Shown: piece by piece, positions 2 through 25,872 of the stretch
How the letters are laid out: the number at the start of each line of letters is the position of its first letter
Numbering within the stretch: the first letter of the stretch is position 1
IMG/VR virus record: IMGVR_UViG_3300030107_000421
Span: 1-25,872 of that record
DNA: 25,872 nt
From: a virus
Strand: one strand, 5' to 3'
Notes under the pieces: generated by a model
The model's input: the letters and a program-made list of their open reading frames with translations, nothing else
What the model was told of the DNA's origin: nothing
The model's database searches: none
Made by a program: the position numbers and the translations under genes

Positions 2-3000
2 CAATATTTAAAAACAAATGGCTCGGGTGTTTTAAGTTGGGGCAATGATTCAGTAACCCCTGGTGCTGGATCTATTACAGCTGCAATGATCTCATCTGGT
101 CTTCAGTTAGGAACGATTGATGCACAAAATAATACTTTATTAGGATCAACAGCTGGAGATAGTTTTAGTGGAACAGATGCTACAGCTAATACTCTTATTG
201 GTTACGCAGCAGGAACAGCAATAACAACTGGTGATTTAAATACTGCTGTTGGTAAGAATGCTCTATATCTAAACACAACAGGAAATTACAACGTAGGCAT
301 TGGTGCTAATTCTTTATCTAATAATACTGCGTCAGAAAATACTGCTATTGGATATAACTCAGCAAAAGAAATTACAACTGGTACTCGTAATACAGTAGTT
401 GGATATGCTGCCTTAGATGCTTGTACTACTGGAGTTGATAACGTTGCCGTTGGACAGGCTGCACTAAGTAATGCCACTACTGCATCTTATAATACTGCTC
501 TAGGTAGATCAGCTTTAATTGCAAACACAACAGGTATTTCTAACGTAGCAATTGGTTATGTTGCATTAACAGCAAACTCAACTGCAAGTTATAATACTGC
601 TATTGGTTCTGCTGCTTTAGATGCTAACACAACAGCTGAAGGCAACACTGGTATTGGATATGCTGCATTATCTGCAAATACAACAGGAGCCGATAATACA
701 GCTATAGGTAAAAATTCTTTACTTTCCAATACAACTGCATCTAACAATGTAGCGGTTGGTTCTGAAGCATTAGATGCTAATACAACGGGAGTACAGAACG
801 TAGCATTAGGTAAGGGTTCTTTAAGTTTAAATACAACTGGTGGATATAACGTATCTGTTGGTGAAAATTCCATGCGTGATAATACGACAGGAACGTATAA
901 CACAGTAGTTGGTCAAGATGCTTTAAGAGCAAATACGACATCTGGAAGTCATACAGCAATTGGGCATTCAGCTTTAGGTTTAAATACAACTGGTGTAAAT
1001 AGTGTTGCTGTAGGTTCAACAGCTTTAAGTGTTAATACAAGTGGTGATAGGCATGTTGCAGTTGGAATAGGTGCTTTAAGTTCTAATACTACAGGAATAA
1101 GAAATACAGCTTTAGGGGGTAGTTCAGGAGCACTAAATACTACTGGTAATTATTTAGTTGCTGTTGGTTTTGAATCTTTAAAAGCAAATACAACAGGAGT
1201 AAGAAATGTAGCTATTGGTTCTTATGCATTATTAGGAAATACAACCGCTAGCAGTAACTGTGCTGTTGGTTTTGAAGCATTAAAGACAACTACAACTGGA
1301 ACTGAAAATGTCTCTGTAGGTTCTTACTCAATGTTGGATAACACCACAGGAGGACAAAACACAGCCTTAGGTGAAAGTGCATTAGCAAATAACACTACGG
1401 CAAGCAATAATACTGCTATAGGAAAAAATGCTTTATTACAGAACACAACTGGTGATGTTAATACTGCTGTTGGTTCATATGCATTAGATGCAAATACAAC
1501 TGGATATAATAATACTGCTGTTGGTAATCATGCTTTAGGAGATGGTACTAATGTAGATTATGTTGTTGCTATTGGTTTTAATGCATTAAAAGCAAATCAA
1601 GCTGATTACAATACTGCTGTAGGTAGTGAAGCATTAGAAGCTAATACAACAGGTACTGCTAATATTGCTATAGGATTTAGAACGTTAGAAGCAAATACAA
1701 CAGGTGCTAACAACACTGCTGTTGGTTATGCTGCAGCACAAAGTATTACTACAGGAAATAATAATGTTGCTATTGGAAGAGCTGCTTTAACTGCAAATAC
1801 AACTGGAATAGATAATACTGCTGTAGGTTCTGAAACTTTAGATGCTACTACAACAGGAGGTAATAATACTGCTGTTGGTCGTATTGCATTAACTACTAAT
1901 ACAACTGGAGCTGGTAATACAGCTATTGGATCTCAATCAATGAGATATTGTACTACTGGTATGTACAATACTGCTGTTGGTTATGTTGCAGGACAAGATA
2001 TAACTACTGGAGAGTACAATACAACTCTTGGATTTTATGCAGGAAAAGATATAACAACAGGTCATCGTAATGTTGCTTTAGGTAGTGATGCTTTAAGAAC
2101 ACTTTCAACAGCAGATGATAATACTGCTGTAGGTACCAATGCTGGATATTATATGACTACAGGAAGTGATAATGTTGCTATTGGAAAAGATGCTTTAATG
2201 GATAATACGACAGCTAATTATAATGTAGCTATAGGTTCAACTGCAGGAAATAATATAACAACAGGAACTGAAAATACTGTTATTGGTGCATTAGCTCTAC
2301 AGGCTGCAACAACTGATCAAGGTATTGTAGCAATTGGTAAAGGTTCAATGCAAAACTCTACTGCAAGTTATAACACTGCAATAGGAGTAAGTAGTTTAGC
2401 TAACACAACAGGTAGCCATAACGTAGCTATTGGTAGAAATACAATGGGAGGAGCAGGTGGCACAAATTTCTGTACTGCTGTTGGTGATTATGTTTTAGAT
2501 GCTACTAGTACAGGAGATTACAATACTGGTCTTGGTTATGCAGCTTTAACAACAAATACTTCTGGTTCAAATAATACTGCTATTGGTTACAAAGCATTAG
2601 AAGCAAACACAACTGCAAATGCTAATGTAGCTTGTGGTAGACAAGCTTTACTGGCTTGTACAACAGGTGTAACTAATACAGCAATTGGCTATGATAGTGG
2701 ACTAACAGTTACAACAGGTGAGAACAATGCATTCTATGGATATGCAGCTGGTAAAACTACATCTCCTGGTGGCGGTATAACTACTGAAGATAATAGAATT
2801 GTTATGGGAAATAATAGTGTTACTGATGCTTATATTAAAGTGGCATGGAATGTCACCTCTGATGAAAGAGATAAAACTGATATAACTGATTTCATACCTG
2901 GTTTATCTTGGATTAATAAATTACGTCCAATTACTTACAGATGGGATGAAAGAAGTAATTACAGTGATGATTTGAGTGTCAAACCTGATGGAACACACAA

Positions 3001-3211
3001 AAAAAATAGGTTAAATCTTGGATTCTTAGCACAGGAAGAATTAGAAATTGAAAAAGAACATGGCTATGGAAATAGTGAAGATGATATGTTAATTACTTCC
3101 ATAAGTGGAGATGGTAAGCAGTATTCCATGAAGTATGAAAGATTAGTTCCTATACTTGTTAATGCAATAAAAGAACTATCAGCAGAAGTTCAAGCTCTTA
3201 AGGCCGCTTAG
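2..3211 (+). CDS. Fibre 1: repeat-shaft tail-fibre-like protein with C-terminal S74 chaperone domain (5'-partial)
   Basis: Probable trimeric phage fibre or adhesin. The frame is open to the left edge (codons from base 2), so the true start lies outside the window and the ATG at 86 is only internal. The visible N-terminal stretch reads QYLKTNGSGVLSWG and continues into QLGTIDAQNNTLLG. About fifty 17-residue repeats follow (pattern N-T/V-A-I/V-G-x3-L-x2-N-T-T-G/A-x2), resembling the YadA-type beta-roll family. A neck at about 2800-2857 leads to an S74 domain starting SDERDKTDI, with Ser at 2858-2860. In this family the domain helps trimerisation and then cleaves itself off just before that Ser. 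Motifs GLSWINKL and GFLAQEELE are present, and the end (AIKELSAEVQALKAA) is probably a coiled coil. The neck and S74 domain resemble fibre 3, whereas the start resembles fibre 2. Receptor unknown. Confidence 0.9.
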   Translation, partial: QYLKTNGSGVLSWGNDSVTPGAGSITAAMISSGLQLGTIDAQNNTLLGSTAGDSFSGTDATANTLIGYAAGTAITTGDLNTAVGKNALYLNTTGNYNVGIGANSLSNNTASENTAIGYNSAKEITTGTRNTVVGYAALDACTTGVDNVAVGQAALSNATTASYNTALGRSALIANTTGISNVAIGYVALTANSTASYNTAIGSAALDANTTAEGNTGIGYAALSANTTGADNTAIGKNSLLSNTTASNNVAVGSEALDANTTGVQNVALGKGSLSLNTTGGYNVSVGENSMRDNTTGTYNTVVGQDALRANTTSGSHTAIGHSALGLNTTGVNSVAVGSTALSVNTSGDRHVAVGIGALSSNTTGIRNTALGGSSGALNTTGNYLVAVGFESLKANTTGVRNVAIGSYALLGNTTASSNCAVGFEALKTTTTGTENVSVGSYSMLDNTTGGQNTALGESALANNTTASNNTAIGKNALLQNTTGDVNTAVGSYALDANTTGYNNTAVGNHALGDGTNVDYVVAIGFNALKANQADYNTAVGSEALEANTTGTANIAIGFRTLEANTTGANNTAVGYAAAQSITTGNNNVAIGRAALTANTTGIDNTAVGSETLDATTTGGNNTAVGRIALTTNTTGAGNTAIGSQSMRYCTTGMYNTAVGYVAGQDITTGEYNTTLGFYAGKDITTGHRNVALGSDALRTLSTADDNTAVGTNAGYYMTTGSDNVAIGKDALMDNTTANYNVAIGSTAGNNITTGTENTVIGALALQAATTDQGIVAIGKGSMQNSTASYNTAIGVSSLANTTGSHNVAIGRNTMGGAGGTNFCTAVGDYVLDATSTGDYNTGLGYAALTTNTSGSNNTAIGYKALEANTTANANVACGRQALLACTTGVTNTAIGYDSGLTVTTGENNAFYGYAAGKTTSPGGGITTEDNRIVMGNNSVTDAYIKVAWNVTSDERDKTDITDFIPGLSWINKLRPITYRWDERSNYSDDLSVKPDGTHKKNRLNLGFLAQEELEIEKEHGYGNSEDDMLITSISGDGKQYSMKYERLVPILVNAIKELSAEVQALKAA
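128..2755 (+). repeat. 51-base coding repeat array in fibre 1
   Basis: About fifty degenerate tandem units of 51 bases encode the 17-residue shaft repeats. Units diverge freely at the DNA level while keeping Gly at position 5, a hydrophobic residue near position 9, and the NTTG/NTTA turn. The array boundaries are approximate. Confidence 0.85.
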
Positions 3212-3335
3212 AACGTTTTCTTTCGAAGTGCAAATCAATTCTTAACTTTCCATAGTAAAGAATTCCAAGCCAAACAGAAAACATAACTCCGTCAAACCAA
3301 CTTAGACTATGCCAAGCTTCTACTGCACCATCCAT
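3198..3335 (-). CDS. Small single-span membrane protein (45 aa), tentative
   Basis: A 45-codon minus-strand frame begins MDGAVEAWHSLSW. It holds one hydrophobic segment (about residues 16-28, VMFSVWLGILYYG) and ends in a basic tail (FERKRSKRP). It fills the otherwise empty gap after fibre 1, overlaps the last 14 bases of that gene, and starts next to the PsbN-like gene. The codons look like the AT-rich usage of the neighbours. No Shine-Dalgarno is visible, which is normal for this window. No family is recognised. Its orientation against both neighbours and its small size keep confidence low. Confidence 0.4.
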   Translation of the reverse strand: MDGAVEAWHSLSWFDGVMFSVWLGILYYGKLRIDLHFERKRSKRP

Positions 3336-3378
3336 GATTCATTTGTTTTTAGCTAAGTCCATCATCTCACATGGACAT

Positions 3379-3651
3379 ATGCAACCTTTACCACCACAAG
3401 GTCAGCTCGTTGTTCTTATATGTGCAATTCTTTTTTCTTTAGTTGGATATGGAATCTATTTAACCTTTGGTCCTGGAAAGGATGAATTAAAAGATGCTAT
3501 TGATGAACATGCAAAGATGCATGAACTAGGTATTGCACATGGACATACACCATCAAATAAAGAAGATATGGAAATATATTTTGATGCCTTTCGTAATGCT
3601 TCTGATCATCATAAAGAAGTAATGGAAGAACTAAACTCAAATGATAAATAA
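3379..3651 (+). CDS. psbN: PsbN-like small membrane protein
   Basis: A 90-residue protein if started at the ATG at 3379. An upstream in-frame ATG at 3334 would add 15 residues but overlaps the divergent minus-strand frame. Residues 9-30 form one membrane segment, followed by GYGIYLTFGPGKDELKDAIDEH. This recalls cyanobacterial PsbN (membrane segment, then GYxxYxxFG...L+DPFEEHED). PsbN is a thylakoid protein of about 43 residues needed for assembly and repair of the photosystem II reaction centre. Here an extra acidic, His-containing tail of about 45 residues follows. If correct, this is a photosynthesis auxiliary gene that may support the photosystem during infection. The similarity was judged by eye from memory, so the symbol is provisional. 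Confidence 0.5.
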   Translation: MQPLPPQGQLVVLICAILFSLVGYGIYLTFGPGKDELKDAIDEHAKMHELGIAHGHTPSNKEDMEIYFDAFRNASDHHKEVMEELNSNDK

Positions 3652-3682
3652 TGCTATCGTAAAGTTATTCTTAATCTGTTAA

Positions 3683-4133: not shown

Positions 4134-4134
4134 A

Positions 4135-5016: not shown

Positions 5017-5020
5017 GGGA

Positions 5021-5275
5021 TTAAGAAGAATGGTGTTCTATTCTATGGCAATTGCTACATAATGGAATACATTTATCAATTTCTTGTTGAATACGTTTCC
5101 AAGAGTAACCTCTATATACCATATTAGAGATAGCAAATTCTTTATCTCTAATATGATGAAAATCTATTACTCTATGATCTTGTATTCCACATTCTTTGCA
5201 CCTAATTGTTTTCTTATATTCAACTAGTTTCTTTTGATTTTTCCTTATCCGCTTCTTATCATCAGCCCACGACAT
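5021..5275 (-). CDS. HNH endonuclease-like protein with zinc knuckles (84 aa)
   Basis: Probable DNA endonuclease of the small free-standing HNH type. A Lys/Arg-rich N-terminus is followed by CKECG (Cys26, Cys29), the DFHH core (His40, His41), a helical segment, and CSNCHRIEH (Cys73, Asn75, Cys76, His77, His81). In this family the Cys pairs bind structural zinc and the His/Asn residues form the metal-dependent nicking site, all of which are present. It starts one base downstream of the methyltransferase stop. It could be a homing nuclease or a packaging or recombination nuclease; pairing with the adjacent methyltransferase as a restriction system is not supported, because that enzyme shows no DNA-methylase motifs. 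Confidence 0.8.
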   Translation of the reverse strand: MSWADDKKRIRKNQKKLVEYKKTIRCKECGIQDHRVIDFHHIRDKEFAISNMVYRGYSWKRIQQEIDKCIPLCSNCHRIEHHSS

Positions 5276-5276
5276 C

Positions 5277-5933
5277 TTAATCTAGTTCCCTCCAGATCCA
5301 ACCCATTTGGTAATCATTTATATAAGGTTCTATATCTAAAGCAGTCATTAACTCATTAATAAGTCTGCCTTTTCCTATCCTTAATGGGATTACATTTGTT
5401 TGTGGGCTAGGCATATTGTCATCTACAACTATTAGAGTACCTGGTTTAATAGCATTCTTTGCAGCAAATAACTCTTTCAAATGATGACTAGCAGCTTCCC
5501 AATCATTTGACCAATCCTCAATGTTATATGAATCTAAATACAATAGATCAATTTTCCCATCTAAAGTAGATAGAAACTCAATCGAATCTTGATTATTTAC
5601 TTCTGCATGAAAAGTATTTTTACTTGCAAGCTCGCATGCCTTAGGGTCAATATCAACTGATAAAAGGGTTCCTCCATAAATTTCTATAAACTCATCAAAC
5701 AAAAGTGTTGAGCATCCATCACCTTCGTAGTTATCAACTTCTCTATAACATCCTGTCTCTACAATGATGGGATCTTTTTTAGTCCTTAAGTAATCAAAAA
5801 TCTTAGTAAAACCTTCTTCTCTACTTGTCTTAGTTATAGGTTCATTTAAACGTTTTTTAATCTTAGAGAAATATGCGTCCCATAATTTATCGTTTGTCTT
5901 CTTAGTTCTTCTTTTTTTAGTAGTTTCTGGCAT
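5277..5933 (-). CDS. SAM-dependent methyltransferase, class I
   Basis: A 218-residue protein. After a Lys/Arg-rich N-terminus (KKRRTKKT) comes a Rossmann-type fold: motif I VETGCY (58-63) with GDGCST, the acidic end of strand 2 in SVDID (92-96), strand 4 in DLLYLDS (129-135) and a later strand in GTLIVVDD (165-172). It resembles the class-24-type methyltransferases that act on small molecules or sugars. No NPPY/DPPY or PC motif of DNA methylases is seen. The substrate is unknown; a role in glycan modification with the glycosyltransferase and cupin nearby is inference. It leads the minus-strand unit and is divergent from the nuclease gene at 6024. Confidence 0.8.
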   Translation of the reverse strand: MPETTKKRRTKKTNDKLWDAYFSKIKKRLNEPITKTSREEGFTKIFDYLRTKKDPIIVETGCYREVDNYEGDGCSTLLFDEFIEIYGGTLLSVDIDPKACELASKNTFHAEVNNQDSIEFLSTLDGKIDLLYLDSYNIEDWSNDWEAASHHLKELFAAKNAIKPGTLIVVDDNMPSPQTNVIPLRIGKGRLINELMTALDIEPYINDYQMGWIWRELD

Positions 5934-9741: not shown

Positions 9742-10995
9742 ATGGGTAAAAAACCTAAGTTACTATGGTCTGGTGACATAGTAGCAATGACTGGATTTGC
9801 TAGAGTTACTGAAAATGTTTTAAAACATATTAAAGATGATTTTGAAATTGTAGTCTTAGGTCATAATTGGTGGGGTGATCCTCATCCATTACAGAAGGAA
9901 TATAAAATGTATCCTTCATCTAATAGATTTCAAACTGCTCCTTTTGGTGAAGAACGTATTAGGGAAATAGTAACAGCAGAAGCACCTGATATTGTATTTA
10001 CTATTAATGATATGTGGATTGCTAATGAGCAATACAGACGTATCCAAGATTTACATAAAGAAAAGAAATTTAAGTTTGTAGGATATTCTCCTATGGACTC
10101 TTATAACTGGACAGGTTGTCTTAGTGATACTGCTAACGATTGGGATGCAATAGTTTCTTATACAGAATTTGGTGCAAGAGAATTTATAAAAGGTGGTATT
10201 AAAAAACCAGTTGCAGTTGTACCTCATGGTGTAACTCCAGGTCAGTTCTATCCCATAGACAAGAAGGAAGCTAGAAAAAAACTAGGTTTAAAAGAAGATA
10301 TCTTTATCGTCTTCAATGGTAATAGAAATCAATTCCGTAAGAGACAGGATATAAATATTGCTGCATTTGCTAAGTTTGCAAAGGATAGACCAGATACTCA
10401 GTTATATATGCATATGGGTAAGAAGGATCAAGGCTGGGATTTAATGCATGTCTTTGATCGAGAAATGAAGAAGAATGGACTAGATCCTAATGGAAGAATT
10501 ATTCTTACAGCAGATACTGATGGTCCTCCAAATGTTGAAGTTGATACGTTAAACACTATATATAATTGTGCAGATGTAGGGATAAACACATGCAAAGGAG
10601 AAGGCTGGGGTCTTGTAAACTTTGAGCATGCAGCTTGTCGAGTAGCTCAAGTAGTTCCTAGTCATACATCCTGTAAAGAAATCTTTGAAGGATATGGCCG
10701 CCTAATCCGTTGCGATCACATAGATGTTGACACCAATTATTCTAGGGAAATGCCTTGCCCTTCAACTAATCACCTTACGGAGATCCTTGTTGACTTGTAT
10801 GAAAATAGAGACAAGCTTGAAGCAACAGCAGAACTTTGCTATGAAAGAGTAACTGATCCACGTTTTGAATGGCAAAATATAGCTGCTCAGTTCTCAGGAA
10901 TCTTCCAGGATGCTTTGAATAACGTAGATCACTCAACTACACCTAAACCAAAACCGAAAAAGAAAAAAAGAATTAAGAGGAAGTTAGGAAAATGA
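9742..10995 (+). CDS. Glycosyltransferase, GT-B fold (GT4-like)
   Basis: A 417-residue protein with two Rossmann halves. The N-terminal half has LLWSGDIVAMTGFARVTE and VGYSPMD. PHGV (161-164) marks the usual linker before the donor-binding half, which contains FNGNRNQFRKRQD (191-203) and GEGWGLVNFEHA (286-297), the E-x7-E motif (Glu287, Glu295) of retaining GT4 enzymes that bind the nucleotide-sugar. A Lys/Arg-rich tail (PKPKPKKKKRIKRK) may bind membrane lipids or nucleic acid. The gene overlaps the cupin gene as ATGA. The substrate cannot be read from sequence. Phage enzymes of this type decorate virion proteins, DNA bases or host surface glycans. Confidence 0.85.
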   Translation: MGKKPKLLWSGDIVAMTGFARVTENVLKHIKDDFEIVVLGHNWWGDPHPLQKEYKMYPSSNRFQTAPFGEERIREIVTAEAPDIVFTINDMWIANEQYRRIQDLHKEKKFKFVGYSPMDSYNWTGCLSDTANDWDAIVSYTEFGAREFIKGGIKKPVAVVPHGVTPGQFYPIDKKEARKKLGLKEDIFIVFNGNRNQFRKRQDINIAAFAKFAKDRPDTQLYMHMGKKDQGWDLMHVFDREMKKNGLDPNGRIILTADTDGPPNVEVDTLNTIYNCADVGINTCKGEGWGLVNFEHAACRVAQVVPSHTSCKEIFEGYGRLIRCDHIDVDTNYSREMPCPSTNHLTEILVDLYENRDKLEATAELCYERVTDPRFEWQNIAAQFSGIFQDALNNVDHSTTPKPKPKKKKRIKRKLGK

Positions 10996-11342
10996 AAATA
11001 TATTTTAAACCATGGGGTTGGTATAAGGATCTTTATGAAGGTCCAGGATATAAACTAAAAATAATCAGTATTGACGAAGGCCATCAACTTAGTTTGCAGT
11101 CTCATCAATATAGAAGTGAAGTTTGGAATACAGTATCTGGACAAGGAGAATTTTTTGTATCAGGAATATGGTCATTAGCTAGAGTAGGTAACTGCATAAA
11201 AGTTCCTGTTAATACTATCCATAGAGCTAAAGGCGGTAAAGGAGGTTTAGTTTTCGTAGAAATTCAATTTGGAGAAAAACTTTCTGAAGATGATATAAAA
11301 AGACTTGAAGATGACTACGGAAGAGTGGTATTATCTGAATAA
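10992..11342 (+). CDS. Mannose-6-phosphate isomerase type-II-like cupin
   Basis: A 116-residue single cupin matching the C-terminal isomerase domain of bifunctional mannose-1-phosphate guanylyltransferase/isomerases. It starts with KPWGWY (6-11), then has LSLQSH (33-38) with metal-ligand candidates His38 and Glu43, VPVNTIH (71-77) with His77, and the hallmark end EDDIKRLEDDYGR (99-111). The full active-site pattern seems present. In the family it interconverts fructose-6-phosphate and mannose-6-phosphate, feeding GDP-mannose synthesis. The guanylyltransferase half is absent. Coupling to the glycosyltransferase (4-base overlap, GGAAG-type ribosome site just before) suggests a sugar-supply role. 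A related sugar-isomerase or binding role is possible. Confidence 0.82.
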   Translation: MKIYFKPWGWYKDLYEGPGYKLKIISIDEGHQLSLQSHQYRSEVWNTVSGQGEFFVSGIWSLARVGNCIKVPVNTIHRAKGGKGGLVFVEIQFGEKLSEDDIKRLEDDYGRVVLSE

Positions 11343-14945: not shown

Positions 14946-15401
14946 ATGTTTTTTGATTCAATTGCTCTTGTTACAGGAGGATTTGATCCTATTCATAGTG
15001 GTCATATAAAATATTTCGAAAACGCAAAGAAATTATCAGATTGTTTAGTTGTTGGACTAAATAGTGACAAATGGTTAATAAATAAAAAAGGCCAATACTT
15101 CCAAACTTGGAAAGAACGTGCAAATATAATTAGTCATTTAGATATGGTTAATATTGTTATAGATTGGGATGATTCAGATAACTCTGCATGTAGAGCAATT
15201 CAGAAATGTTTTCAACTAACTAATAAGATTTATTTTGCTAATGGTGGAGATCGTAGTTCAAATAACACACCTGAATTAGATCGATATGCTTTAGATCCCA
15301 GAGTAGAGTTCGTTTGGAGTGTTGGAGGTGACGATAAAATTAATAGCAGTTCTTGGATATTGGATAAATATTATCAAGAAAGGGAATCAATTTGTAGGTG
15401 A
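14946..15401 (+). CDS. Cytidylyltransferase-like nucleotidyltransferase
   Basis: A 151-residue protein of the HxGH nucleotidyltransferase superfamily. TGGFDPIHSGH (10-20) holds the catalytic His17 and His20, followed by LVVGLNSDKWLINKKG, NGGDRS and the KINSSSWI motif that replaces ISSTxI. These enzymes (for example glycerol-3-phosphate cytidylyltransferase or the ADP-heptose synthase nucleotidyl domain) transfer a nucleotide to a phosphorylated sugar or alcohol, giving an activated donor. It fits with the glycosyltransferase and cupin of this window in surface-glycan or lipid modification. The substrate cannot be told. Length is normal for a stand-alone domain. Confidence 0.82.
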   Translation: MFFDSIALVTGGFDPIHSGHIKYFENAKKLSDCLVVGLNSDKWLINKKGQYFQTWKERANIISHLDMVNIVIDWDDSDNSACRAIQKCFQLTNKIYFANGGDRSSNNTPELDRYALDPRVEFVWSVGGDDKINSSSWILDKYYQERESICR

Positions 15402-15954: not shown

Positions 15955-16380
15955 ATGAAGCGGCTTTTACTGCTGTTTTTATTATATCCAGTACCTGTAT
16001 TTGCTGTACCCGTCACGCCAAATTTTCAAAGCGGTTCGATGACCTCCCACACGGAGACAACTTCTAAAGTTTCTGAGGTGATTTCGGTTATTGAATATCA
16101 ATCTGGTTGGCAAATGACACTGACAGGGAATAATATAACTACAGATGCTGATAGTCTTTTACCAGCAGCTACTTCAACATCTAATACAGTTAACGGAGTT
16201 GTATCTACATGGACTGGTTTAGATGCTACTAATATGCCGAATTTCACAATAATTGATCCAACAAAAGCATGGCAATTTACTTCATCACTAACACAACCAG
16301 GGATGAAATCTCACACGGTAATAACTCGTACAAGCGAAATAACATCAGTAACAGATACGGTTTCAACCTTCAGTCAATAA
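15955..16380 (+). CDS. Secreted protein (141 aa)
   Basis: A signal peptide (MKRLLLLFLLYPVPVFA, cut near residue 17) and a Thr/Ser-rich mature part (SMTSHTETTSKVSEVIS, then TRTSEITSVTDTVSTFSQ). The two ends share an S/T-E-(I/V)-xSV motif, hinting at an internal repeat or paired strands. No Cys in the mature protein. Five bases after the preceding gene, and its stop overlaps the probable ATA start of the next as ATAA. Function unknown; an extracytoplasmic partner of its neighbours is inferred from the shared signal peptides and spacing. Confidence 0.7.
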   Translation: MKRLLLLFLLYPVPVFAVPVTPNFQSGSMTSHTETTSKVSEVISVIEYQSGWQMTLTGNNITTDADSLLPAATSTSNTVNGVVSTWTGLDATNMPNFTIIDPTKAWQFTSSLTQPGMKSHTVITRTSEITSVTDTVSTFSQ

Positions 16381-17234
16381 AGTATGTATTACTAATACTT
16401 ATTAATACCTTTAGTCTATTCCCTCAAGTTAGTAAAGCAGAAAGTGTAGGTGGAGTTAGCGCAAGCGCAGCACCAGTTGCTAACAGTAGTGGATCAGTTA
16501 CAAACCAAGCCATACAGGTTTTGCAAGGTCCATATATAACTAATACTTATGGGAATGGAGTTTCATGTCAAGGACCAACTTTAAACATTACTCCATTCGT
16601 AACAGGAAGTAATTCTTGGAAAGATCCTTATGAAGGATACTGGGATTCGCCCGTATATGACATGACAACAGATGATGATGGTAATCTAAATAATCCAGGC
16701 TCTATCTTGTATTACGTTCCTACAAGGACTGGGCAGAAAGCAAATAACAATGTTTCATTAGGTATAAGTGCAACAGTATCTATTCCATTAGATAAACGTC
16801 ATCATGAAGGTTGTTTAAGAGCTGCTACTACACAAACAAAATTAACTCAACAAATATTAGCTAATAAACGGTTAGACTTTGAATTTGCGAGACTTAAACA
16901 TTGTGCTGAACAAAAAAGACTTGGAGTATCCTTCCATCCTTCCAGCCCCTCTTTCAAAATTTGCTCAGATATTGTTGTCACTAATCCCCATGGAGTTATA
17001 CCGCAACATCAACATTCTATTTCTTCACCTTCTTTTTCTTCAACGGAGGTAAATCTTTCTTCTCCCGATACTGATTTGCAACAATCTCAGAACGGGTCAA
17101 CTTCGGTGGAGTCTTCCCAAGCAACTTCTGAACCTTCTTCATTGCAGTCTTTATCAGAGGCTTTATTGCCTTCAGAACAAGATCAGCCAGGGGCTTTGCT
17201 AGGACTGCCGATGACGTTGCCACAAGAGCAATAG
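16377..17234 (+). CDS. Secreted protein with possible ATA start and antisense C-terminal extension
   Basis: The frame encodes a signal peptide KYVLLILINTFSLFPQVSKA, then ESVGGVSASAAPVANSSG and a polar body with a few Cys (SCQGPT, EGCLRAAT, KHCAEQ, FKICSD). The only in-frame ATG, at 16269, would place this signal peptide 36 residues inside and overlap the previous gene by 112 bases. ATA at 16377 instead overlaps the previous stop as ATAA and puts the signal peptide first. The helical part near 16840-16930 (TQQILANKRLDFEFARLKHC) precedes VVTNPHGVIPQHQ, after which about 70 Ser/Pro/Gln-rich residues are encoded antisense to the minus-strand gene. That tail looks like read-through, not a conserved domain. 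Confidence 0.6.
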   Translation: MKYVLLILINTFSLFPQVSKAESVGGVSASAAPVANSSGSVTNQAIQVLQGPYITNTYGNGVSCQGPTLNITPFVTGSNSWKDPYEGYWDSPVYDMTTDDDGNLNNPGSILYYVPTRTGQKANNNVSLGISATVSIPLDKRHHEGCLRAATTQTKLTQQILANKRLDFEFARLKHCAEQKRLGVSFHPSSPSFKICSDIVVTNPHGVIPQHQHSISSPSFSSTEVNLSSPDTDLQQSQNGSTSVESSQATSEPSSLQSLSEALLPSEQDQPGALLGLPMTLPQEQ

Positions 17235-17778
17235 ATGCAGTTGTTGTTACAGCCCCAGCTGTAGGTAATGCATCAACTACTTGTTGAATAATTGGAATTT
17301 CTTCGTATAGAGTAACGCATCTACCATTTTGTACTTCATAGCCACTAATTTTTTTATTACCTTCAACTTTAGAACCGGCTATAGGAGCCTCATTTGGGGG
17401 ACAAATTATTTCTGGGGTATTTGTATTAGGTAGTTCTGGTTCAGGTGGTTCAAATACTTCATCAGTATCCAAAGGAATTTGTGGGACTTCAGCAGGCTTA
17501 GTTAGTATTAATTGTTCTGGTTCATAATTCATTGGATTATAACTAGGTACAGTGCCATCACATAAAATTACATTTCCTTTTTGATCTTCTTCTGTAAGTT
17601 TATTTGATTTTTTATTAGCAGGATTGTACTCAATACATCCAGGTAATTGAATAATAGGTGACCCAATATTTAGAGTTACAGGAGTAGTCTTTGGTACATT
17701 TAATTGTGTATCAAAGTAATAATCTGGTATTTCTATTATTGCTACTTCAATATTGGGAATTTTTATTTCTGGTATCAT
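17017..17778 (-). CDS. Proline-rich protein with a membrane segment (253 aa)
   Basis: An N-terminal half rich in Pro, Ile and acidic residues (MIPEIKIPNIEVAIIEIPDYY, PEPELPNTNTPEIICPPNEAP) precedes a domain with GYEVQNGRCVTLYEEIP. A hydrophobic segment follows (TTTASIALVATSSAVLAKPLADLVL, part of it likely in the membrane), then a very basic tail (KTAMKKVQKLLGK, PPLKKKKVKK). It resembles, from memory, a T4-like cyanophage family located beside relatives of the secreted cluster. Its last 218 bases overlap, antisense, the plus-strand gene ending 17234. The natural-looking basic tail suggests that this strand is the constrained one. Function unknown; a virion or envelope-associated protein is plausible. 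Confidence 0.7.
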   Translation of the reverse strand: MIPEIKIPNIEVAIIEIPDYYFDTQLNVPKTTPVTLNIGSPIIQLPGCIEYNPANKKSNKLTEEDQKGNVILCDGTVPSYNPMNYEPEQLILTKPAEVPQIPLDTDEVFEPPEPELPNTNTPEIICPPNEAPIAGSKVEGNKKISGYEVQNGRCVTLYEEIPIIQQVVDALPTAGAVTTTASIALVATSSAVLAKPLADLVLKAIKPLIKTAMKKVQKLLGKTPPKLTRSEIVANQYREKKDLPPLKKKKVKK

Positions 17779-18140: not shown

Positions 18141-21100
18141 TTATGCAGATTCAAGAGCAGCAAGTCTAGCTTCTAAAGCAGTATTTTTTGCTGATAGTTC
18201 TTTTATTGCATTTATTATCATAGGAATAAAATCAGATTGACCTACAGTTAAATTATTAGGATCATCTTCATTAACAATCTTTGTATAAGTTGCATTTGTT
18301 TCAGTTAATACAGCTTGTAATTCTTGTGCAATAAAACCTGCTTTAGTTTTACCATTGCCCCAAGTAGCAGCTCTTTTTTCATCTCTAAAATTCCATTTAA
18401 ATTTTCTAGGTTGTATTTTTTTAATAAATTCTAAACCTAAATCAAGGTCAACTATATCTGTTTTATCTCTACCATCTGAACTAAATGTCCAACTTGAAGC
18501 ACTACCATCAAAGTTTGCATTAACTGTTCCATTATAAATAGCAACTTTATTTGAAGTGTTACCAAAATCACCATTTGAACCAATAAGAACTTGATGATTT
18601 GCTGTTGTTGCACCACGTATATATTCACCTATATGTACGTTATTAGTACCAGTAGTTAGACCATATGCACTATTATGACCTACAGAAACATTATGAGTTC
18701 CTGTAGTTACATTATAAAGAGCTTGATAACCAACTCCAGTATTTTTTTCTCCAGTAGTGCAATATCTTAAAGCATTAGCTCCAAGAGCTACTTCTTTATC
18801 TGCTGTTGTAACAAGAATTCCTGCTTGATAACCAAGAGCAGTACTATAGCCACCTTCTGTATTTTCTTGTAAAGCAGAACGACCACAAGCTGTATTAGTA
18901 CCTCCTGTAGTATTATTTGTTAATGCATAGAATCCAACAGCAGTGTTATTAGCTCCTGTTGTGTTTTCTGTTAATGCATAATAACCAACACCAGTATTAG
19001 CACCTGCAGTTGAATTTTTTCTTAAACAATTAAGTCCAACAGCAACGTTATAAGTACCTGTTGTGTTTTCATCTAAAGCGTAATAACCAAGAGCAGTATT
19101 CCTCTCTCCTGTCGTGTTTGCACTTAATGCTCGATAACCAAAAGCACAACTATAAGAACCTGTCGTATTAGCATCTAAACTATCAACTCCTATAGCAGTA
19201 TTCTGTTGTCCAGTAGTATTTAACCTTAAAGCATCTCTACCTACTGCAACGTTGTAACTTGCAGTTGTATTATATTGTAAAGATCTAGTACCTACAGCAG
19301 TATTCTCTATACCCGTTGTATTCGACCATAAAGTGTAATAACCAAAACCATCATTTTTATCTCCAGTTGTATTTGTAGATAAAGAATTAAAACCAACAGC
19401 AGTATTAAAACTTGCAGTTGTGTTGGCATCTAAAGCGTAAGTACCAACAGCAACATTTGTTTCTCCAGTTGTGTTCTGTAATAAAGCGTTATAACCTATA
19501 GCAGTATTATTATCTGCTGTAGTATTTGCTTGCATAACACCATATCCAAGGGCAGTATTACCAGTACCTGTTGTATTACTATCTAAATTGTAATTACCAA
19601 TAGCAACGTTATTTGCACCAGTAGTATTTAGTTTTAATGCGTCATATCCAATAGCAGTAGAATTACTTGCAGTCGTATTATCAGCTAAAGCATTTCTACC
19701 AATAGCCGTATTTTCATGTCCTGTTGTGTTATCACTTAAAGCCGCATATCCTATTGCTGTATTATTATCTGCAGTCGTATTTGCATCTAAAGTCCACGCT
19801 CCACAAGCAGTATTATATTCTCCTGTCGTATTAGCTTGTAATGAAGCAACACCTACTGCTGTATTATAATTTGCAGTCGTATTAGAATCTAAAGCTTCAG
19901 AACCTACAGCAGTATTTGCAGCACCTGTTGTATTAGCATACAAAGCACTTTTACCAATTGCAGTATTATTATCTGCTGTTGTATTTAGTGATAATGAACC
20001 ACTACCTAATGCGGTGTTGTTATCACCAGTAGTATTTGAATGAGCTGAAGCTCTACCAACAAATGTATTATAATTACCTGTTGTATTTACTCTACCTGCA
20101 TACCAGCCAACAGCAGTATTATTAGCAGAAGTGTTGCTCATTAATGCTTCTGCACCAACAGCTGTACATTCACCATTAGTTTCCTGATCTCTTAGTGCTT
20201 CATATCCAATAGCAGTATTATTTGGACCTGTTGTTATAGTTTTACCAGCATAGTAACCAACTGCAGTGTTTTTTGATCCAGTTGTATTTGCATTTAAGGC
20301 AAAATATCCTACACCAGTACCACCAGAAGCAGTAGTATTTGCAAATAACGCTCCTTGACCACCAGCAAAATTACTACTTCCAGTGGTATTGCTTCCTAGC
20401 GTTGATATTCCTACTGCTGTATTACCATTACCTGTTGTACTTGCGTCTAATGATTCGGTACCTACAGCTACGTTAGAAGTACCTGTTGTGTTTAATTTTA
20501 AAGAATCAAGACCAATAGCTACATTATTATTAGCTGTTGTATTGCTTTGTAACGCGTTAGTACCTATAGCAGTATTATATTGACCAGTTGTATTTGTATT
20601 TAAAGATGTATAACCAACAGCTACATTACTATTAGCAGTAGTAGCTAAATATAATGCTCTTCTACCTACAGACGTATTATAGCTACCTGTTGTATTGCTA
20701 GTTAATGCTTCATCTCCTAAGCCAACATTATAATTACCTGTAGTATTTGCATCTAAACTTAAAACACCAACAGCAGTATTTTCACTTCCTGTAGTATTTG
20801 CACTCATACTGTTATAACCAATAGCAGTATTACCACTTGCAGTTGTATTATCATCTAAAGCTAAATATCCAACTGCTACGTTTTGCGATCCAGTTGTATT
20901 TTCTTCTAATGCAAAAGAACCTAAAGCAGTATTACCATCAGCAGTTGTATTTTGTTCTAATGCTGAATAACCAATACCAACGTTATTAGCTCCTGTTGTA
21001 TTGGCAAATAAGGATGATCTACCTATTGCACTATTTTGAGAACCTGTTGTATTTGACCCTAATGAATTATGACCAATGGCAATATTAGCATCAGCAGTAG

Positions 21101-22256
21101 TATTAGCATCTAAAGCAAAAGAACCTACCGCAACATTTGTTGTTCCTGTTGTGTTTACAACTAATGCATTATAACCTATTCCTGTATTACTATTTGCTGT
21201 TGTGTTTTCTCTTAATACACCCCAACCTAGAGCAGTATTATAAGTTCCTGTTGTATTATCTTCTAGTGCTACATTACCAACTGCAGTATTATAAGAAGCT
21301 GTCGTATTAGCACTTAATGCATGAAAACCAATAGCATTATTTTGAATACCTGTTGTATTTGCATCTAAAGCATTTGCACCAATAGCAACGTTTGAAGCTC
21401 CTGTTGTGTTTGCAGTTAATGCTATATAACCAAAGGCTGTATTATTACTTGCTGTTGTATTTTGCCCTAAAGCTCCCGCACCAGTTGCTGTATTATAACT
21501 TCCAGTTGTATTGGCATCCATTGCTTGATGACCAACAGCTACGTTTGCATCACCAGATGTGTTTTGAACTAAAGCACTATTACCGACTGCTGTTGCATTA
21601 CTTGCTGTGCAATTTTGCAATGTATGAGAACCAACAGCAGTACAACTAGCTCCAGTTGCTAGTTGCATAGCATTATGTCCAACAGCAGTATTAGAGTTTA
21701 CTGTTGTAACAGTGCTTAAAGCACCTTCCCCTATACCTACGTTACCAGCACCAGTTGTAATTGCATCACCAGCACTATATCCAACAACAGTATTTACATC
21801 ACCACTTGTTATAGCAGTTCCAGCATCATAACCTATTAATGTGTTCTTAATTGCATCTGTACCAGTAAATGAATTTCCTGCATTAGTTCCTAATAAAGTA
21901 TTATTCTGTGCATCAACTGTTCCTAATTGGTATCCACTATATATAGATGCTGGTAAAACTGTATTATCACTTGGAGTTCCTACTGCGTAAGCATCTCCTA
22001 ATATTAATGCAAAGAAAGCGAGTCCAGATGCTGGTGCTGTAGTAAATGTAAGACTAGAACCACTAACCGTAAAATCAGTTTCAGGCTTTTGTATTACACC
22101 ACCAAGGGATAAAAGTAAGTTTCGAGCTGTTCCAGGTTTTATCGCTGCTGAACTTGCAGTCAGAGAGAATGCAGTTGTACTTCCATTAAATCCACTGGAG
22201 ATGTCATCACACAGGCTGTATCGTCCAACTACAGGGGATTGACCTAAATATGCCAT
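18141..22256 (-). CDS. Fibre 2: complete repeat-shaft tail-fibre-like protein with S74 domain (1371 aa)
   Basis: The only complete fibre here. Residues 1-95 form an N-terminal domain (MAYLGQSPVVGRYSLCDDIS, then LSLGGVIQKPETDF and LILGDAYAVGTPSD) of the kind that attaches cyanophage fibres to the virion, recognised from memory. A junction YQLGTVDAQNNTLLG leads to about sixty-three 17-residue repeats (about 119-1220), then a neck and the S74 domain. That domain begins SDGRDKTDI at Ser1260 (18477-18479) and contains GFIAQELQAVL and a C-terminal coiled coil (LSAKNTALEARLAALES). Trimerisation and self-cleavage before Ser1260 are expected from the family. Its S74 domain differs from those of fibres 1 and 3. 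Followed on the minus strand by the membrane-anchored small protein. Confidence 0.92.
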   Translation of the reverse strand: MAYLGQSPVVGRYSLCDDISSGFNGSTTAFSLTASSAAIKPGTARNLLLSLGGVIQKPETDFTVSGSSLTFTTAPASGLAFFALILGDAYAVGTPSDNTVLPASIYSGYQLGTVDAQNNTLLGTNAGNSFTGTDAIKNTLIGYDAGTAITSGDVNTVVGYSAGDAITTGAGNVGIGEGALSTVTTVNSNTAVGHNAMQLATGASCTAVGSHTLQNCTASNATAVGNSALVQNTSGDANVAVGHQAMDANTTGSYNTATGAGALGQNTTASNNTAFGYIALTANTTGASNVAIGANALDANTTGIQNNAIGFHALSANTTASYNTAVGNVALEDNTTGTYNTALGWGVLRENTTANSNTGIGYNALVVNTTGTTNVAVGSFALDANTTADANIAIGHNSLGSNTTGSQNSAIGRSSLFANTTGANNVGIGYSALEQNTTADGNTALGSFALEENTTGSQNVAVGYLALDDNTTASGNTAIGYNSMSANTTGSENTAVGVLSLDANTTGNYNVGLGDEALTSNTTGSYNTSVGRRALYLATTANSNVAVGYTSLNTNTTGQYNTAIGTNALQSNTTANNNVAIGLDSLKLNTTGTSNVAVGTESLDASTTGNGNTAVGISTLGSNTTGSSNFAGGQGALFANTTASGGTGVGYFALNANTTGSKNTAVGYYAGKTITTGPNNTAIGYEALRDQETNGECTAVGAEALMSNTSANNTAVGWYAGRVNTTGNYNTFVGRASAHSNTTGDNNTALGSGSLSLNTTADNNTAIGKSALYANTTGAANTAVGSEALDSNTTANYNTAVGVASLQANTTGEYNTACGAWTLDANTTADNNTAIGYAALSDNTTGHENTAIGRNALADNTTASNSTAIGYDALKLNTTGANNVAIGNYNLDSNTTGTGNTALGYGVMQANTTADNNTAIGYNALLQNTTGETNVAVGTYALDANTTASFNTAVGFNSLSTNTTGDKNDGFGYYTLWSNTTGIENTAVGTRSLQYNTTASYNVAVGRDALRLNTTGQQNTAIGVDSLDANTTGSYSCAFGYRALSANTTGERNTALGYYALDENTTGTYNVAVGLNCLRKNSTAGANTGVGYYALTENTTGANNTAVGFYALTNNTTGGTNTACGRSALQENTEGGYSTALGYQAGILVTTADKEVALGANALRYCTTGEKNTGVGYQALYNVTTGTHNVSVGHNSAYGLTTGTNNVHIGEYIRGATTANHQVLIGSNGDFGNTSNKVAIYNGTVNANFDGSASSWTFSSDGRDKTDIVDLDLGLEFIKKIQPRKFKWNFRDEKRAATWGNGKTKAGFIAQELQAVLTETNATYTKIVNEDDPNNLTVGQSDFIPMIINAIKELSAKNTALEARLAALESA
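18600..21902 (-). repeat. 51-base coding repeat array in fibre 2
   Basis: About sixty-three degenerate 51-base units, the longest of the three arrays. NTTG and NTTA turns alternate irregularly, and ALDANTT recurs every few units. The ends are approximate. Confidence 0.85.
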
Positions 22257-22322
22257 TTAGCCACTAAACTTATTACTCTTATATAATTTTATCGTTACCT
22301 GACTTGGGAGATCGAAAGATAA

Positions 22323-22571
22323 TTAAGCTGGTTCAGTAACAGTTTCTTCTGCAACTTCTCCTCTTAAGACATCTTCTAATGCAGCAATAGAACCATTAAT
22401 GCTAATAGCTTCTCTTTCTAATTGAAGAGCTTCGTTATTCAATTGTTGAATAGTTTGCTGTGCAGCAGAGATTCCTTGCTGCTTTTCAGCAAAATCATTT
22501 TGGATCTCTTGAAGTTTTGCTTTTAAAGCATCAACTCTTTCTTTCACTTTTTCTTCACCTAAGCAGGACAT
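22323..22571 (-). CDS. Small coiled-coil protein (82 aa)
   Basis: Almost entirely heptad-like: VDALKAKLQEIQNDFAEKQQ, then AAQQTIQQLNNEALQLEREA and a final IAALEDVL. The acidic tail is EVAEETVTEPA. A single Cys sits at residue 3. It lies between the two minus-strand fibre genes, so a fibre-associated or chaperone-like role is a reasonable guess. Spacing to its neighbours is 31 bases upstream and 66 bases to the start of fibre 2; no Shine-Dalgarno. Confidence 0.7.
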   Translation of the reverse strand: MSCLGEEKVKERVDALKAKLQEIQNDFAEKQQGISAAQQTIQQLNNEALQLEREAISINGSIAALEDVLRGEVAEETVTEPA

Positions 22572-22602
22572 GATTTTTTAGAAACTAAGCTAAGTATAGT
22601 TC

Positions 22603-22851
22603 TTAATACTTAGATTTACCAAGTGTGACAGCCGCATCAATTGCAGTAAAGCTTTCACTACCCCAAATAGATGTTGTACCATCTAGCTTTTTATATGCTT
22701 TGATGATTTCAAGATGATCAACATTTCTCTTAAGAGTATCTTTGTCTTCATCACTAATAGATGACTGACCAGCAACACTATTTATAAGAGTAACGCTATC
22801 TCCAGCAGCACTATAGATTGCGGCTACCTCATCAGCAGTTCTTTCTTCCAT
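22603..22851 (-). CDS. Hypothetical protein between fibre genes (82 aa)
   Basis: Begins MEERTADEVAAIYSAAGDSV with the ATG at 22851; a TTG at 22863 would add four residues and is less likely. The body is helical with a conserved-looking core (SDEDKDTLKRNVDHLEIIK, then LDGTTSIWGSESF and AAVTLGKSKY). It resembles, from memory, a short conserved cyanophage protein beside fibre genes. No membrane segment or metal motif. Probably part of the fibre operon; the exact role is unknown. Confidence 0.7.
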   Translation of the reverse strand: MEERTADEVAAIYSAAGDSVTLINSVAGQSSISDEDKDTLKRNVDHLEIIKAYKKLDGTTSIWGSESFTAIDAAVTLGKSKY

Positions 22852-22896
22852 GTCAAAAACCAATGTTATATATAAATTTTAGCAGTAATGTATCTT

Positions 22897-25872
22897 TTAT
22901 GTAGTTTCGAGGGCTGTGACTTTTGCAGATAGTTCTTTTACTGCGTTAATTAATATAGGAACTAATTTTGCATATTGCATCCCGTACGATCCATCACCAT
23001 TTATACTTGCGATCAACATATTGTCCTTAGAGTCTCCGTATCCATGTTCTTTTTCTACTTCTAGTTCATCTTGTGCTATCAACCCTACATTTAGTTTTGG
23101 TGCTTTTTTACTTCCATCTGGTACACCGTTTTCGTAATCACTTCTATTATCCCAACGATAAGTAACTGGATTTAATTTATTAATCCAAGATAATCCATAA
23201 ATAAATGGTTCTATATCAGTCTTATCTCTTCTGTCTGATGTAACAGTCCAGTCAACTTTTATAAAAGCATCACTAACATTATTATTTCCAATACAAACTT
23301 GATAACTACCGTTTGATACTGAACCTGAAGGAGAACTTGATGTACCTGCAGATCTACCTAATAATGTATTCTGAGCACCAGTCGTAATGTCATAACCTGC
23401 GTCCATACCAACAGCAACATTACTACTACCTGTAGTTAGAGCGTTACATGCACTTCTACCTATACCAACATTACTACCACCTGTTGTAGCATTTATTAAT
23501 GCGTTATAACCTACACCAGTATTATAAGTGCCTGTGGTAACACCCTTACCAGCTTGATAACCGACAGCAGTGTTACTTCCTCCAGTTGTAGTTGTGCTTA
23601 AGGCACTATAACCAACAGCAGTATTTAGTTGTGTTGTATTACTAGCTAGAGCACCTTTACCTAGAGCAGTATTATAATTTCCAGTGACATTATCGTGTAA
23701 AGCATGATAACCAACTGCTGTATTACCAATAGCAGTTGTAATTGCATTTCCTGCTTCATGGCCAATTCCAGTATTCCAATAGCCAGTTGTTAAAGCACTT
23801 AAAGCATTACTACCAACTGCTACAATATTATCTGCCGTTGTTAATGCGTCTAAAGCTTGATAACCAATAGCTACATTATGATCACCTGTTGTAAGAACCT
23901 CTAATGCATCCTTACCAATAGCTACGTTTTGTGCTCCAGTTGTACCTGTAGTTAAGGCACCATAACCAATAGCAGTATTATTACTTGCAGTTGTGTTAGC
24001 TGCTAAAGAAAGTCTTCCTACGGAAGTGTTATATCCTCCAGTTGTATTTACTGCTAAAGCACCCTTTCCAACTCCAATATTAAAACTACCTGTAGTATTA
24101 GCTCCTAATGCTGCTCTACCAACAGCAACATTTTCTTCTCCAGTAGTGTTTGCAGTTAAGGCACTCACACCAACAGCAGTTCCAGAACCTCCAGTTGTGT
24201 TTGTTAATAAAGCGAAAGCACCAACTGATGTATTATTTGCTCCTGTTGTATTTAAGACTAAACAATCTTTACCGACAGCAGTGTTATTACTAGCAGTAGA
24301 GTTTTCTCTTAATGCTTGACTACCAACAGCCGTGTTTGATTCACCTGTTGAATTATCTAACAACGATTGATGACCAATAGCTGTATTATTTCCTGCTGTT
24401 GTGTTCGCTTCTAATGCAGCATAACCAACAGCAGTATTATTACTAGCCGTTGTATTAGCTCCTAAAACTGAAGAACCGACAGCAGTGTTACCTGATCCTG
24501 TTGTGTTGGCATCTAAAGGTTTCCATCCAACTGCTGTATTACCAGCACCAGTTGTATTGGATTGCAAAGTACCTCTACCAAAAGCAGTACCTTTTGTTCC
24601 TGTAGTATTTAGGTATAAAGCTAATGATCCAACAGCAGTACAATCAGAAACAGTACTGTTATATAAAGCTGCTCTACCCATCGCTACATTATCTTCTGAA
24701 GTCGTTACGTTTGCTAAAGTTCCAGAACCAAAAGCAGTATTGTAATCAGCAGTCGTACTTGCTCCTAATGCACCATAACCTGCGGCTGTATTTTGCTGTC
24801 CAGTAGTATGAGCGTCTAAACTGAAAGCACCAATAGCCGTATTATTAGCTCCTGTTGTATTCAACATTAAAGCAGAATCACCAACAGCAACGTTATTATT
24901 AGCTGTAGTTGTCGAATATAAAGAGTTATTACCTACACCAGTATTACTTGCTCCAGTTGTACATGCCATTAAGGAATACTTACCAATACAAGTATTAGAA
25001 CTACCCGTGGTTACATTTGTGCCAGCTTCATATCCTAAAGCTGTGAAATTACCCGCAGTTGTAAGATCCGATCCTGCTGCATGACCAACAGCAGTGTTAG
25101 AACTAGCAGTTGTTTGAGCATCTAAGGCACCATAACCTACAGCAACATTGAATTGTCCTGTTTCTAATGCACCTAACGCAGTATGACCAACAGCTGCGTT
25201 ATAACCTCCAGTAGTGACTGTATCTAGACAACCCCTTCCTACAGCAGTATTACCGTATCCTGTCGTGTTTGATGTCAATGCATCATAACCAACTGCTGTG
25301 TTATCAGTTGCAGTTGTATTCGCATCCAATGCATAAGCACCTACTGCGGTATTATTACCACCTGTTGTAGTAACTCCTAGTGCGGCTCTTCCTATACCAG
25401 TATTATTTCCTCCAGTAGTGTTTCCTGTCAATGCATCCATACCGACAGCAGTACAGCTGGACGCAGTAGTAGTAGCATCTAAGGCAGCAGAACCAATGGC
25501 AGTATTATTACTACCTGTTGTCATTTTGTTTCCTGCTTCATGACCGAGAGCAGTATTATTAGTTCCACTTGTTAAATCACCTAAAGCGTCATAACCGACT
25601 GCTACTAGATCTCCTTGTGTTGTAACACTTCCTAAAGCATGCATACCTACAGCAACATTATTATTTGCTGTGGTAGCTGCATCTAAAGCGTAAGTACCTA
25701 TAGCAGTGTTATAAGTACCAGTTGTATTTAGTCTTAAAGCATCAATACCAATACCAACACTTCTATGTCCAGTTGTATTTGAAAATAATGCTTGATAACC
25801 TAAAGCTGCATTGCTATATCCAGTTGTGTTTGAATATAAAACTTGATGTCCAGCAGCAACATTGTTATTTCC
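22897..25872 (-). CDS. Fibre 3: repeat-shaft tail-fibre-like protein with S74 domain (5'-partial)
   Basis: The frame stays open to the right edge (76 codons past the ATG at 25644, reading GNNNVAAGHQVLYSNTTG), so the start is outside the window. About fifty 17-residue repeats run to near 23370, followed by the neck (CIGNNNVSDAFIKVDW) and the S74 domain starting SDRRDKTDI, with Ser at 23236-23238. GLSWINKL and GLIAQDELE match fibre 1 closely, as does EKEHGYG. The C-terminus (VKELSAKVTALETT) is a short coiled coil. Its paralogy with fibre 1 is clear from the shared neck, but the visible part contains no N-terminal virion-anchor domain. First gene of the minus-strand fibre operon. Confidence 0.9.
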   Translation of the reverse strand, partial: GNNNVAAGHQVLYSNTTGYSNAALGYQALFSNTTGHRSVGIGIDALRLNTTGTYNTAIGTYALDAATTANNNVAVGMHALGSVTTQGDLVAVGYDALGDLTSGTNNTALGHEAGNKMTTGSNNTAIGSAALDATTTASSCTAVGMDALTGNTTGGNNTGIGRAALGVTTTGGNNTAVGAYALDANTTATDNTAVGYDALTSNTTGYGNTAVGRGCLDTVTTGGYNAAVGHTALGALETGQFNVAVGYGALDAQTTASSNTAVGHAAGSDLTTAGNFTALGYEAGTNVTTGSSNTCIGKYSLMACTTGASNTGVGNNSLYSTTTANNNVAVGDSALMLNTTGANNTAIGAFSLDAHTTGQQNTAAGYGALGASTTADYNTAFGSGTLANVTTSEDNVAMGRAALYNSTVSDCTAVGSLALYLNTTGTKGTAFGRGTLQSNTTGAGNTAVGWKPLDANTTGSGNTAVGSSVLGANTTASNNTAVGYAALEANTTAGNNTAIGHQSLLDNSTGESNTAVGSQALRENSTASNNTAVGKDCLVLNTTGANNTSVGAFALLTNTTGGSGTAVGVSALTANTTGEENVAVGRAALGANTTGSFNIGVGKGALAVNTTGGYNTSVGRLSLAANTTASNNTAIGYGALTTGTTGAQNVAIGKDALEVLTTGDHNVAIGYQALDALTTADNIVAVGSNALSALTTGYWNTGIGHEAGNAITTAIGNTAVGYHALHDNVTGNYNTALGKGALASNTTQLNTAVGYSALSTTTTGGSNTAVGYQAGKGVTTGTYNTGVGYNALINATTGGSNVGIGRSACNALTTGSSNVAVGMDAGYDITTGAQNTLLGRSAGTSSSPSGSVSNGSYQVCIGNNNVSDAFIKVDWTVTSDRRDKTDIEPFIYGLSWINKLNPVTYRWDNRSDYENGVPDGSKKAPKLNVGLIAQDELEVEKEHGYGDSKDNMLIASINGDGSYGMQYAKLVPILINAVKELSAKVTALETT
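23370..25872 (-). repeat. 51-base coding repeat array in fibre 3 (continues past the edge)
   Basis: About forty-nine degenerate 51-base units visible, with the same 17-residue pattern. A few units depart from the consensus (for example NSTVSD near 24650 and a shortened unit near 23625). The array runs off the right edge. Confidence 0.85.

What the first reader, a model, noticed from the sequence alone, without database searches (positions are those of the whole stretch)
2..25872. Fibre 1 is a mosaic: N-terminal module like fibre 2, C-terminal chaperone like fibre 3
Seen: the fibre 1 entry QLGTIDAQNNTLLG and following AAGTAITTG mirror fibre 2 (QLGTVDAQNNTLLG, DAGTAITSG). The fibre 1 neck and S74 start (NNSVTDAYIKVAWNVT, SDERDKTDI, GLSWINKL, EKEHGYG) mirror fibre 3 (NNNVSDAFIKVDWTVT, SDRRDKTDI). 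Fibre 2 has a different S74 domain. Inference: recombination inside the 51-base repeat arrays swaps ends between fibre genes, a possible host-range mechanism.
Basis: partly seen in the sequence, partly recalled or inferred. Interest (0 to 1): 0.6.

Follow-up and report, generated by a model that had tools for sequence, protein, structure and literature searches.

The report
Three mix-and-match phage tail fibres
A marine phage fragment carries three long repeat-built tail fibres whose ends really do mix and match, but fibre 1 is not shown to be a hybrid of its two neighbours: its start is closest to the starts of fibre-3-type genes in related phages, so this is ordinary tail-fibre module shuffling.

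Summary
The quoted motifs are real. Fibre 1 (F1) and fibre 3 (F3) carry one class of S74 chaperone (59% aa); fibre 2 (F2) carries another, and an F1+F2 S74 clade is rejected (p-AU 7e-41). The "mosaic of 2 and 3" reading does not hold. F3's N-terminus lies off the contig, so the key comparison was never possible. The "fibre-2-like" entry is a common cap (67 distinct versions found). F1-F2 caps are 74% identical (rank 238 of 2211 pairs), while F1's are 80-83% identical to L150, L151 and L152; L150 and L151 sit at the F3 locus of related phages. So both ends of F1 look F3-like. F1's repeats favour neither F2 nor F3, and F1/F2/F3 share no exact stretch over 24 nt. General module shuffling is well supported in relatives: cap and S74 identity are uncorrelated (Mantel r = -0.004, n = 31), genes share only one end or one inner block, arrays are replaced between ~90%-identical ends, and F3 shares 153 identical nt with the L150 array. 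At the F2 locus, genomes 93-96% identical elsewhere carry unrelated fibres. This matches known receptor-binding-protein modularity. Host-range effect is untested.

The parts
2..3211 (+). Fibre 1 gene (1069 aa seen; 5' end beyond the contig)
   Evidence: Open frame; PHROG tail spike / virion structural families
2..103 (+). F1 pre-cap stem (YLKTNGSGVLSWGNDSVTPGAGSITAAMISSG)
   Evidence: Not similar to F2 here (9 of 33 aligned residues); stem plus cap 81% identical to L150/L151 over 63 aa
104..262 (+). F1 entry cap (QLGTIDAQNNTLLG...GTAITTG)
   Evidence: Cap profile match; groups with L150/L151/L152 at 93/92
110..168 (+). 59 nt identical to the entry of the L150 fibre (an F3-locus fibre)
   Evidence: Exact-match scan
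239..2794 (+). F1 array of about 50 17-aa repeats
2723..3208 (+). F1 neck and S74 chaperone (class I); Pfam core 2858-3064
   Evidence: PF13884; tree
3213..3213 (.). Junction 2 nt after the F1 stop: shared backbone of G001 and L005 begins here, other sequence before it
18141..22256 (-). Fibre 2 gene (1371 aa, complete)
21942..22256 (-). F2 N-terminal anchor (105 aa), conserved at the F2 locus of relatives
   Evidence: 60-72% aa in G006, G008, G014, L127, L128, L134 and others; also in cultured pelagiphages and cyanophages
21771..21929 (-). F2 entry cap (QLGTVDAQNNTLLG...)
18675..21794 (-). F2 repeat array (about 62 units)
18144..18644 (-). F2 neck and S74 chaperone (class II); Pfam core 18300-18479
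22897..25872 (-). Fibre 3 gene (991 aa seen; 5' end and N-terminal module beyond the contig)
24013..24165 (-). 153 nt identical to the array of the L150 fibre, set between unrelated repeats
22900..23373 (-). F3 neck and S74 chaperone (class I); Pfam core 23041-23238

Best explanation
The three genes are trimeric-fibre-type proteins made of separable modules: N-terminal anchor or stem, a common entry cap, a long body of 17-aa repeats, and a C-terminal S74 intramolecular chaperone. In this phage group these modules reassort by recombination. Arrays are replaced wholesale between conserved ends, short tracts move inside arrays, whole bodies are replaced at a locus, and cap and chaperone travel independently (shown by comparison). 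F1 is one product of that pool with both visible ends of the F3-locus type; it is not demonstrably an F2/F3 hybrid. Inferred: conserved ends give homology for exchange and keep assembly and folding intact, while the variable body does the receptor work.
For: F1 cap groups with L150/L151/L152 (93/92), 80-83% vs 74% to F2; L150 and L151 lie at the F3 locus, behind the same 126-130 aa gene and beta-rich gene as in G006, L127, L128, L131. F1 and F3 share S74 class I; F1+F2 rejected. Cap vs S74 identity: Mantel r = -0.004, p = 0.51, n = 31. Of 97 non-redundant gene pairs sharing at least 180 nt at 78% or more, 28 share only an inner block, 21 only the C-end and 16 only the N-end. L150 vs L151: flank 90%, gene start to cap about 90%, then abrupt fall to repeat baseline. 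L094 vs L093: both ends 86%, arrays at unrelated baseline; L113 has their N-end with class I instead of class II S74. F3 and L150 share 153 exact nt inside arrays. G006 F2 and F3 share 153 nt at 98.7% within one genome. F2 locus: backbone 95.6% and 93.5% identical to G001 and G003, yet a class III fibre and non-S74 fibres replace F2.
Against: F3's own N-terminus is unseen; L150 and L151 stand in for it. The F1+F2 cap clade is not rejected (p-AU 0.37) and the leading QLGT is shared by few other caps. All relatives are metagenome contigs that often break in these repeats, so chimeric assembly could fake some junctions or shared tracts. The count of 97 pairs excludes near-identical genes, which would share everything. 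That the body binds the receptor is not tested.
Confidence: 0.75

Rival explanations
1. One reading: recombination inside the 51-base arrays joined an F2-type N-end to an F3-type C-end, producing F1.
For: F1 and F2 caps are sisters in a 20-cap tree (96/90) and the grouping is not rejected with 67 caps; S74 classes differ; inner-array exchange exists in relatives.
Against: F1's nearest caps are elsewhere; upstream of the cap F1 and F2 do not match; F1 units prefer neither F2 nor F3, and the apparent gradient comes from the first and last unit only; longest exact match among the three genes is 24 nt.
Confidence: 0.1
2. F2 is the odd gene: an ancestor had the QLGT cap in all three fibres, and F2 later received a class II S74 (or F1 and F3 are paralogues from a duplication).
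For: F1 and F3-locus fibres share entry type and S74 class; L152 joins the same cap with class I S74; F2 alone is class II.
Against: F2's cap is unresolved in the larger tree; S74 classes turn over at every locus in relatives, so no polarity can be fixed.
Confidence: 0.35
3. No recombination: caps and chaperones are just conserved structural modules, and arrays diverge so fast by point change and unit turnover that they look replaced.
For: All units share one protein consensus and arrays are diverged to a common baseline.
Against: Array units find no 85-90% counterpart anywhere in the partner array although the ends are 86-90% identical, while L068/L069 arrays stay aligned at 96%; same N-end with different S74 class; identical 153-nt islands.
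Confidence: 0.1
4. Assembly artefact: repeat-induced chimeric contigs create the mosaics and shared islands.
For: The window and many relatives end inside arrays.
Against: F1-F2-F3 arrays share no match long enough to confuse an assembler (longest 24 nt); end-only sharing recurs in many independent contigs, and the F3-L150 island has unrelated sequence on both sides.
Confidence: 0.1

Closest known systems
Modular receptor-binding proteins of Klebsiella phages (Latka et al. 2019, PMC6872550)
   Same: Conserved N-terminal anchor, exchangeable central part, sometimes an autocleavable C-terminal chaperone; broken synteny at fibre genes between close relatives.
   Different: Central part here is a long 17-aa repeat array rather than a depolymerase; no enzyme domain found.
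Domain shuffling in phage tail fibres and spikes (PMC10684548)
   Same: Near-identical N-ends with unrelated C-ends and the converse; recent mosaicism strongest in receptor-binding proteins.
   Different: That study works at protein-domain level; here DNA tracts and conserved-end/replaced-array pairs are seen in one marine phage group.
Peptidase_S74 / endosialidase chaperone family (PF13884; Schwarzer 2007, cited in PMC11058221)
   Same: All three fibres end in this domain above the curated cut-off, with the Ser and Lys conserved.
   Different: At least three sequence classes occur at the same loci in relatives; cleavage untested.
Synechococcus phage S-EIV1 (KJ410740)
   Same: Nearest cultured genome by primase (61.6% aa), with a glycosyltransferase next to the primase.
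   Different: No S74 repeat fibre is annotated in the part read.

Membership tests
Peptidase_S74 intramolecular chaperone | Match to PF13884 above the curated cut-off at the C-terminus | tested here: met
   35, 47.8 and 41.9 bits against a cut-off of 22
Peptidase_S74 intramolecular chaperone | Conserved serine and lysine for self-cleavage (SDxRDK) | tested here: met
   S134 and K139 invariant in 10 class I rows; F2 has SSDGRDKTDI
Peptidase_S74 intramolecular chaperone | Self-cleavage after trimerisation | not testable with these tools
   Needs expressed protein
   F3 N-terminus absent from the window; F1 cap 80-83% to L150/L151/L152 vs 74% to F2
   No unit affinity beyond unrelated controls; only first and last units differ
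Modular receptor-binding protein | Conserved N-anchor at a locus with replaced body between close relatives | tested here: met
   F2 anchor 60-72% in relatives with other bodies; F2 replaced in G001 and G003
Modular receptor-binding protein | Body binds the host receptor | not testable with these tools
   No host or binding data
YadA-type head beta-roll | Match to a known YadA head family or fold | tested here: inconclusive
   No Pfam YadA head match; best fold match is YadA 1p9h but only E 0.31, probability 0.57

The most novel reading that the evidence does not exclude
The 17-aa arrays act as exchangeable cassettes: short conserved caps and chaperone ends serve as homology arms shared by three fibre loci, so that a whole receptor-binding body is replaced in one step, within and between genomes, while attachment and folding parts stay.
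Probability: 0.3. Interest if true: 0.5.

Novelty: new member of a known kind. Interest (0 to 1): 0.35.

Why it matters
Tail fibres largely decide which cells a phage can infect. A group of common marine phages that keeps both fibre ends and replaces the repeat body between them would give an easily recognised, testable unit of fibre change. It also warns that similarity between two fibre genes of one contig is weak evidence of a swap when the module is shared by dozens of phages and one gene is truncated.

Tried and rejected
A 20-cap tree gave F1+F2 as sisters at 96/90; adding 47 caps removed it. A positional gradient in F1's affinity for F2 versus F3 (rho -0.31, p 0.03) was driven by the first and last units only. 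L150 looked at first like an F1/F3 hybrid; its upstream genes show it is an F3-locus gene, so the 153-nt tract joins genes of the same locus at different array positions. Exact-match searches for contigs extending the two window ends found none. No relative in the genome collection. PDB sequence searches gave only spurious repeat hits. AlphaFold monomer models were poor outside the repeats (pLDDT 62 and 66). The S74 class labels use a loose 40% nearest-reference rule and misplace a few distant rows; the Mantel value does not depend on them.

Full report
What is there. The window is a complete IMG/VR record of 25,872 bases. It holds three long fibre genes: F1 at 2-3211 (+), F2 at 18141-22256 (-) and F3 at 22897-25872 (-). 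Only F2 is complete. F1 lacks its 5' end. F3 is cut inside its repeat array, so its N-terminal module is not in the window. Each protein has about 50-62 visible repeats, mostly 17 aa, and ends in a Peptidase_S74 chaperone above the Pfam cut-off. PHROGs calls them tail spike / virion structural proteins. The nearest cultured genome by primase is Synechococcus phage S-EIV1 (61.6%). The host is not known.

The C-end. The F1 and F3 neck plus S74 are 59% identical, F1 and F2 35%. In trees F1 and F3 fall in one supported class (16 rows) and F2 in another. Forcing F1 with F2 is rejected (p-AU 7e-41). F3's sister is L065 (99/91, 76% aa). F1 is not F3's special partner, though that pairing is not rejected either (p-AU 0.30).

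The N-end. The motif QLGT(I/V)DAQNNTLLG...GTAITTG is a cap that begins the repeat body in many fibres. I found 67 distinct versions, behind many different stems and before different S74 classes or none. F1-F2 identity is 74%, rank 238 of 2211 pairs. F1's nearest are L150, L151 and L152 (80-83%, clade 93/92). Upstream of the cap F1 and F2 do not match (9 of 33 residues), whereas F1 matches L150 and L151 at 81% over all 63 residues. L150 and L151 lie behind the same two upstream genes as the F3-locus fibres of G006, L127, L128 and L131. F1's entry is therefore nearest to F3-locus entries, and both visible ends of F1 are F3-like.

The arrays. Best-match identity of F1 units to F2 (median 0.72) and to F3 (0.70) equals unrelated controls (0.65-0.73), while the orthologous control L068/L069 gives 0.96. 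The longest exact match among the three genes is 24 nt. There is no sign of exchange among F1, F2 and F3 recent enough to see.

Module shuffling in relatives is nevertheless clear. (a) Among 97 non-redundant gene pairs sharing DNA, most share only an inner block, only the C-end or only the N-end. (b) L113 has the N-end of L093/L094 (83-87% nt) but S74 class I instead of II. (c) L093 and L094 share both ends at 86% while their array units match no better than unrelated ones; L150 and L151 have about 90% identical flanks and starts, then fall to baseline just past the cap. (d) F3 and L150 share 153 identical nt inside arrays at different distances from the start. (e) G006 F2 and F3, in one genome, share a 153-nt tract at 98.7%, and the two fibres of L134 share an S74 end at 82% nt. 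(f) Cap and S74 identities are uncorrelated (Mantel r = -0.004, n = 31). (g) At the F2 locus G001 and G003 (95.6% and 93.5% identical backbone over 11 kb) carry a class III S74 fibre and non-S74 fibres; the shared sequence ends at or near the fibre stop codon. The F1 locus also lacks this fibre in L005, whose similarity to the window starts 2 nt after the F1 stop.

How it most likely works. The anchor fixes the fibre to the virion, the cap starts the repeat body, and S74 is by homology an intramolecular chaperone that drives trimer formation and is then cut off (literature: PMC6872550, PMC11058221; not tested here). AlphaFold gives one short strand per 17 residues in the array (pLDDT 80-90). 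The best, weak, fold match is the YadA head. Swapping S74 ends alone would not be expected to change receptor binding; replacing the body might. That step is inference.

Comparison with what is known. This is the familiar plan of modular receptor-binding proteins (PMC6872550, PMC10684548) in a marine phage group, with repeat arrays as the exchanged part. It is a new member of a known kind.

Limits. Relatives are metagenome contigs, many ending in arrays, so single junctions may be assembly errors. F3's own start is unknown. The pair count omits near-identical genes by design.

Noticed in passing
16269-17234 (+) and 17017-17778 (-): Two genes overlap tail to tail by 218 nt; both are conserved (roughly 65-97% aa) in close relatives with the overlap kept, and 15955-16380 also overlaps the start of 16269 in another frame.
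   Followed up: partly
L127, L128, L131: region between the F3-locus start and the 83-aa gene after F2: Relatives carry five or six successive non-S74 fibre-like genes (starts MALTLNGTTG, MALRLRGATSG, MATLKVTNIKN) where the window has repeat fibres.
   Followed up: no
2-3211, compared with L005 and L008: F1 itself is missing in close relatives: L005 has a 104-aa phrog_6228 gene, and L008 unrelated genes, in its place.
   Followed up: partly
9742-11342 and 14946-15401: Glycosyltransferase, mannose-6-phosphate isomerase-like and cytidylyltransferase-like genes suggest sugar modification by the phage.
   Followed up: no
5021-5933 (-): A small possible HNH-type gene and a possible methyltransferase-like gene (both judged from sequence only) lie on the opposite strand inside the replication genes, conserved in close relatives.
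   Followed up: no
L077 12822-16247 and 8912-12415 (G006): The middle of these fibres holds an internal neck, stem and cap followed by a second array, i.e. end modules also occur inside genes; this piece is nearly identical in two fibres of one genome.
   Followed up: partly
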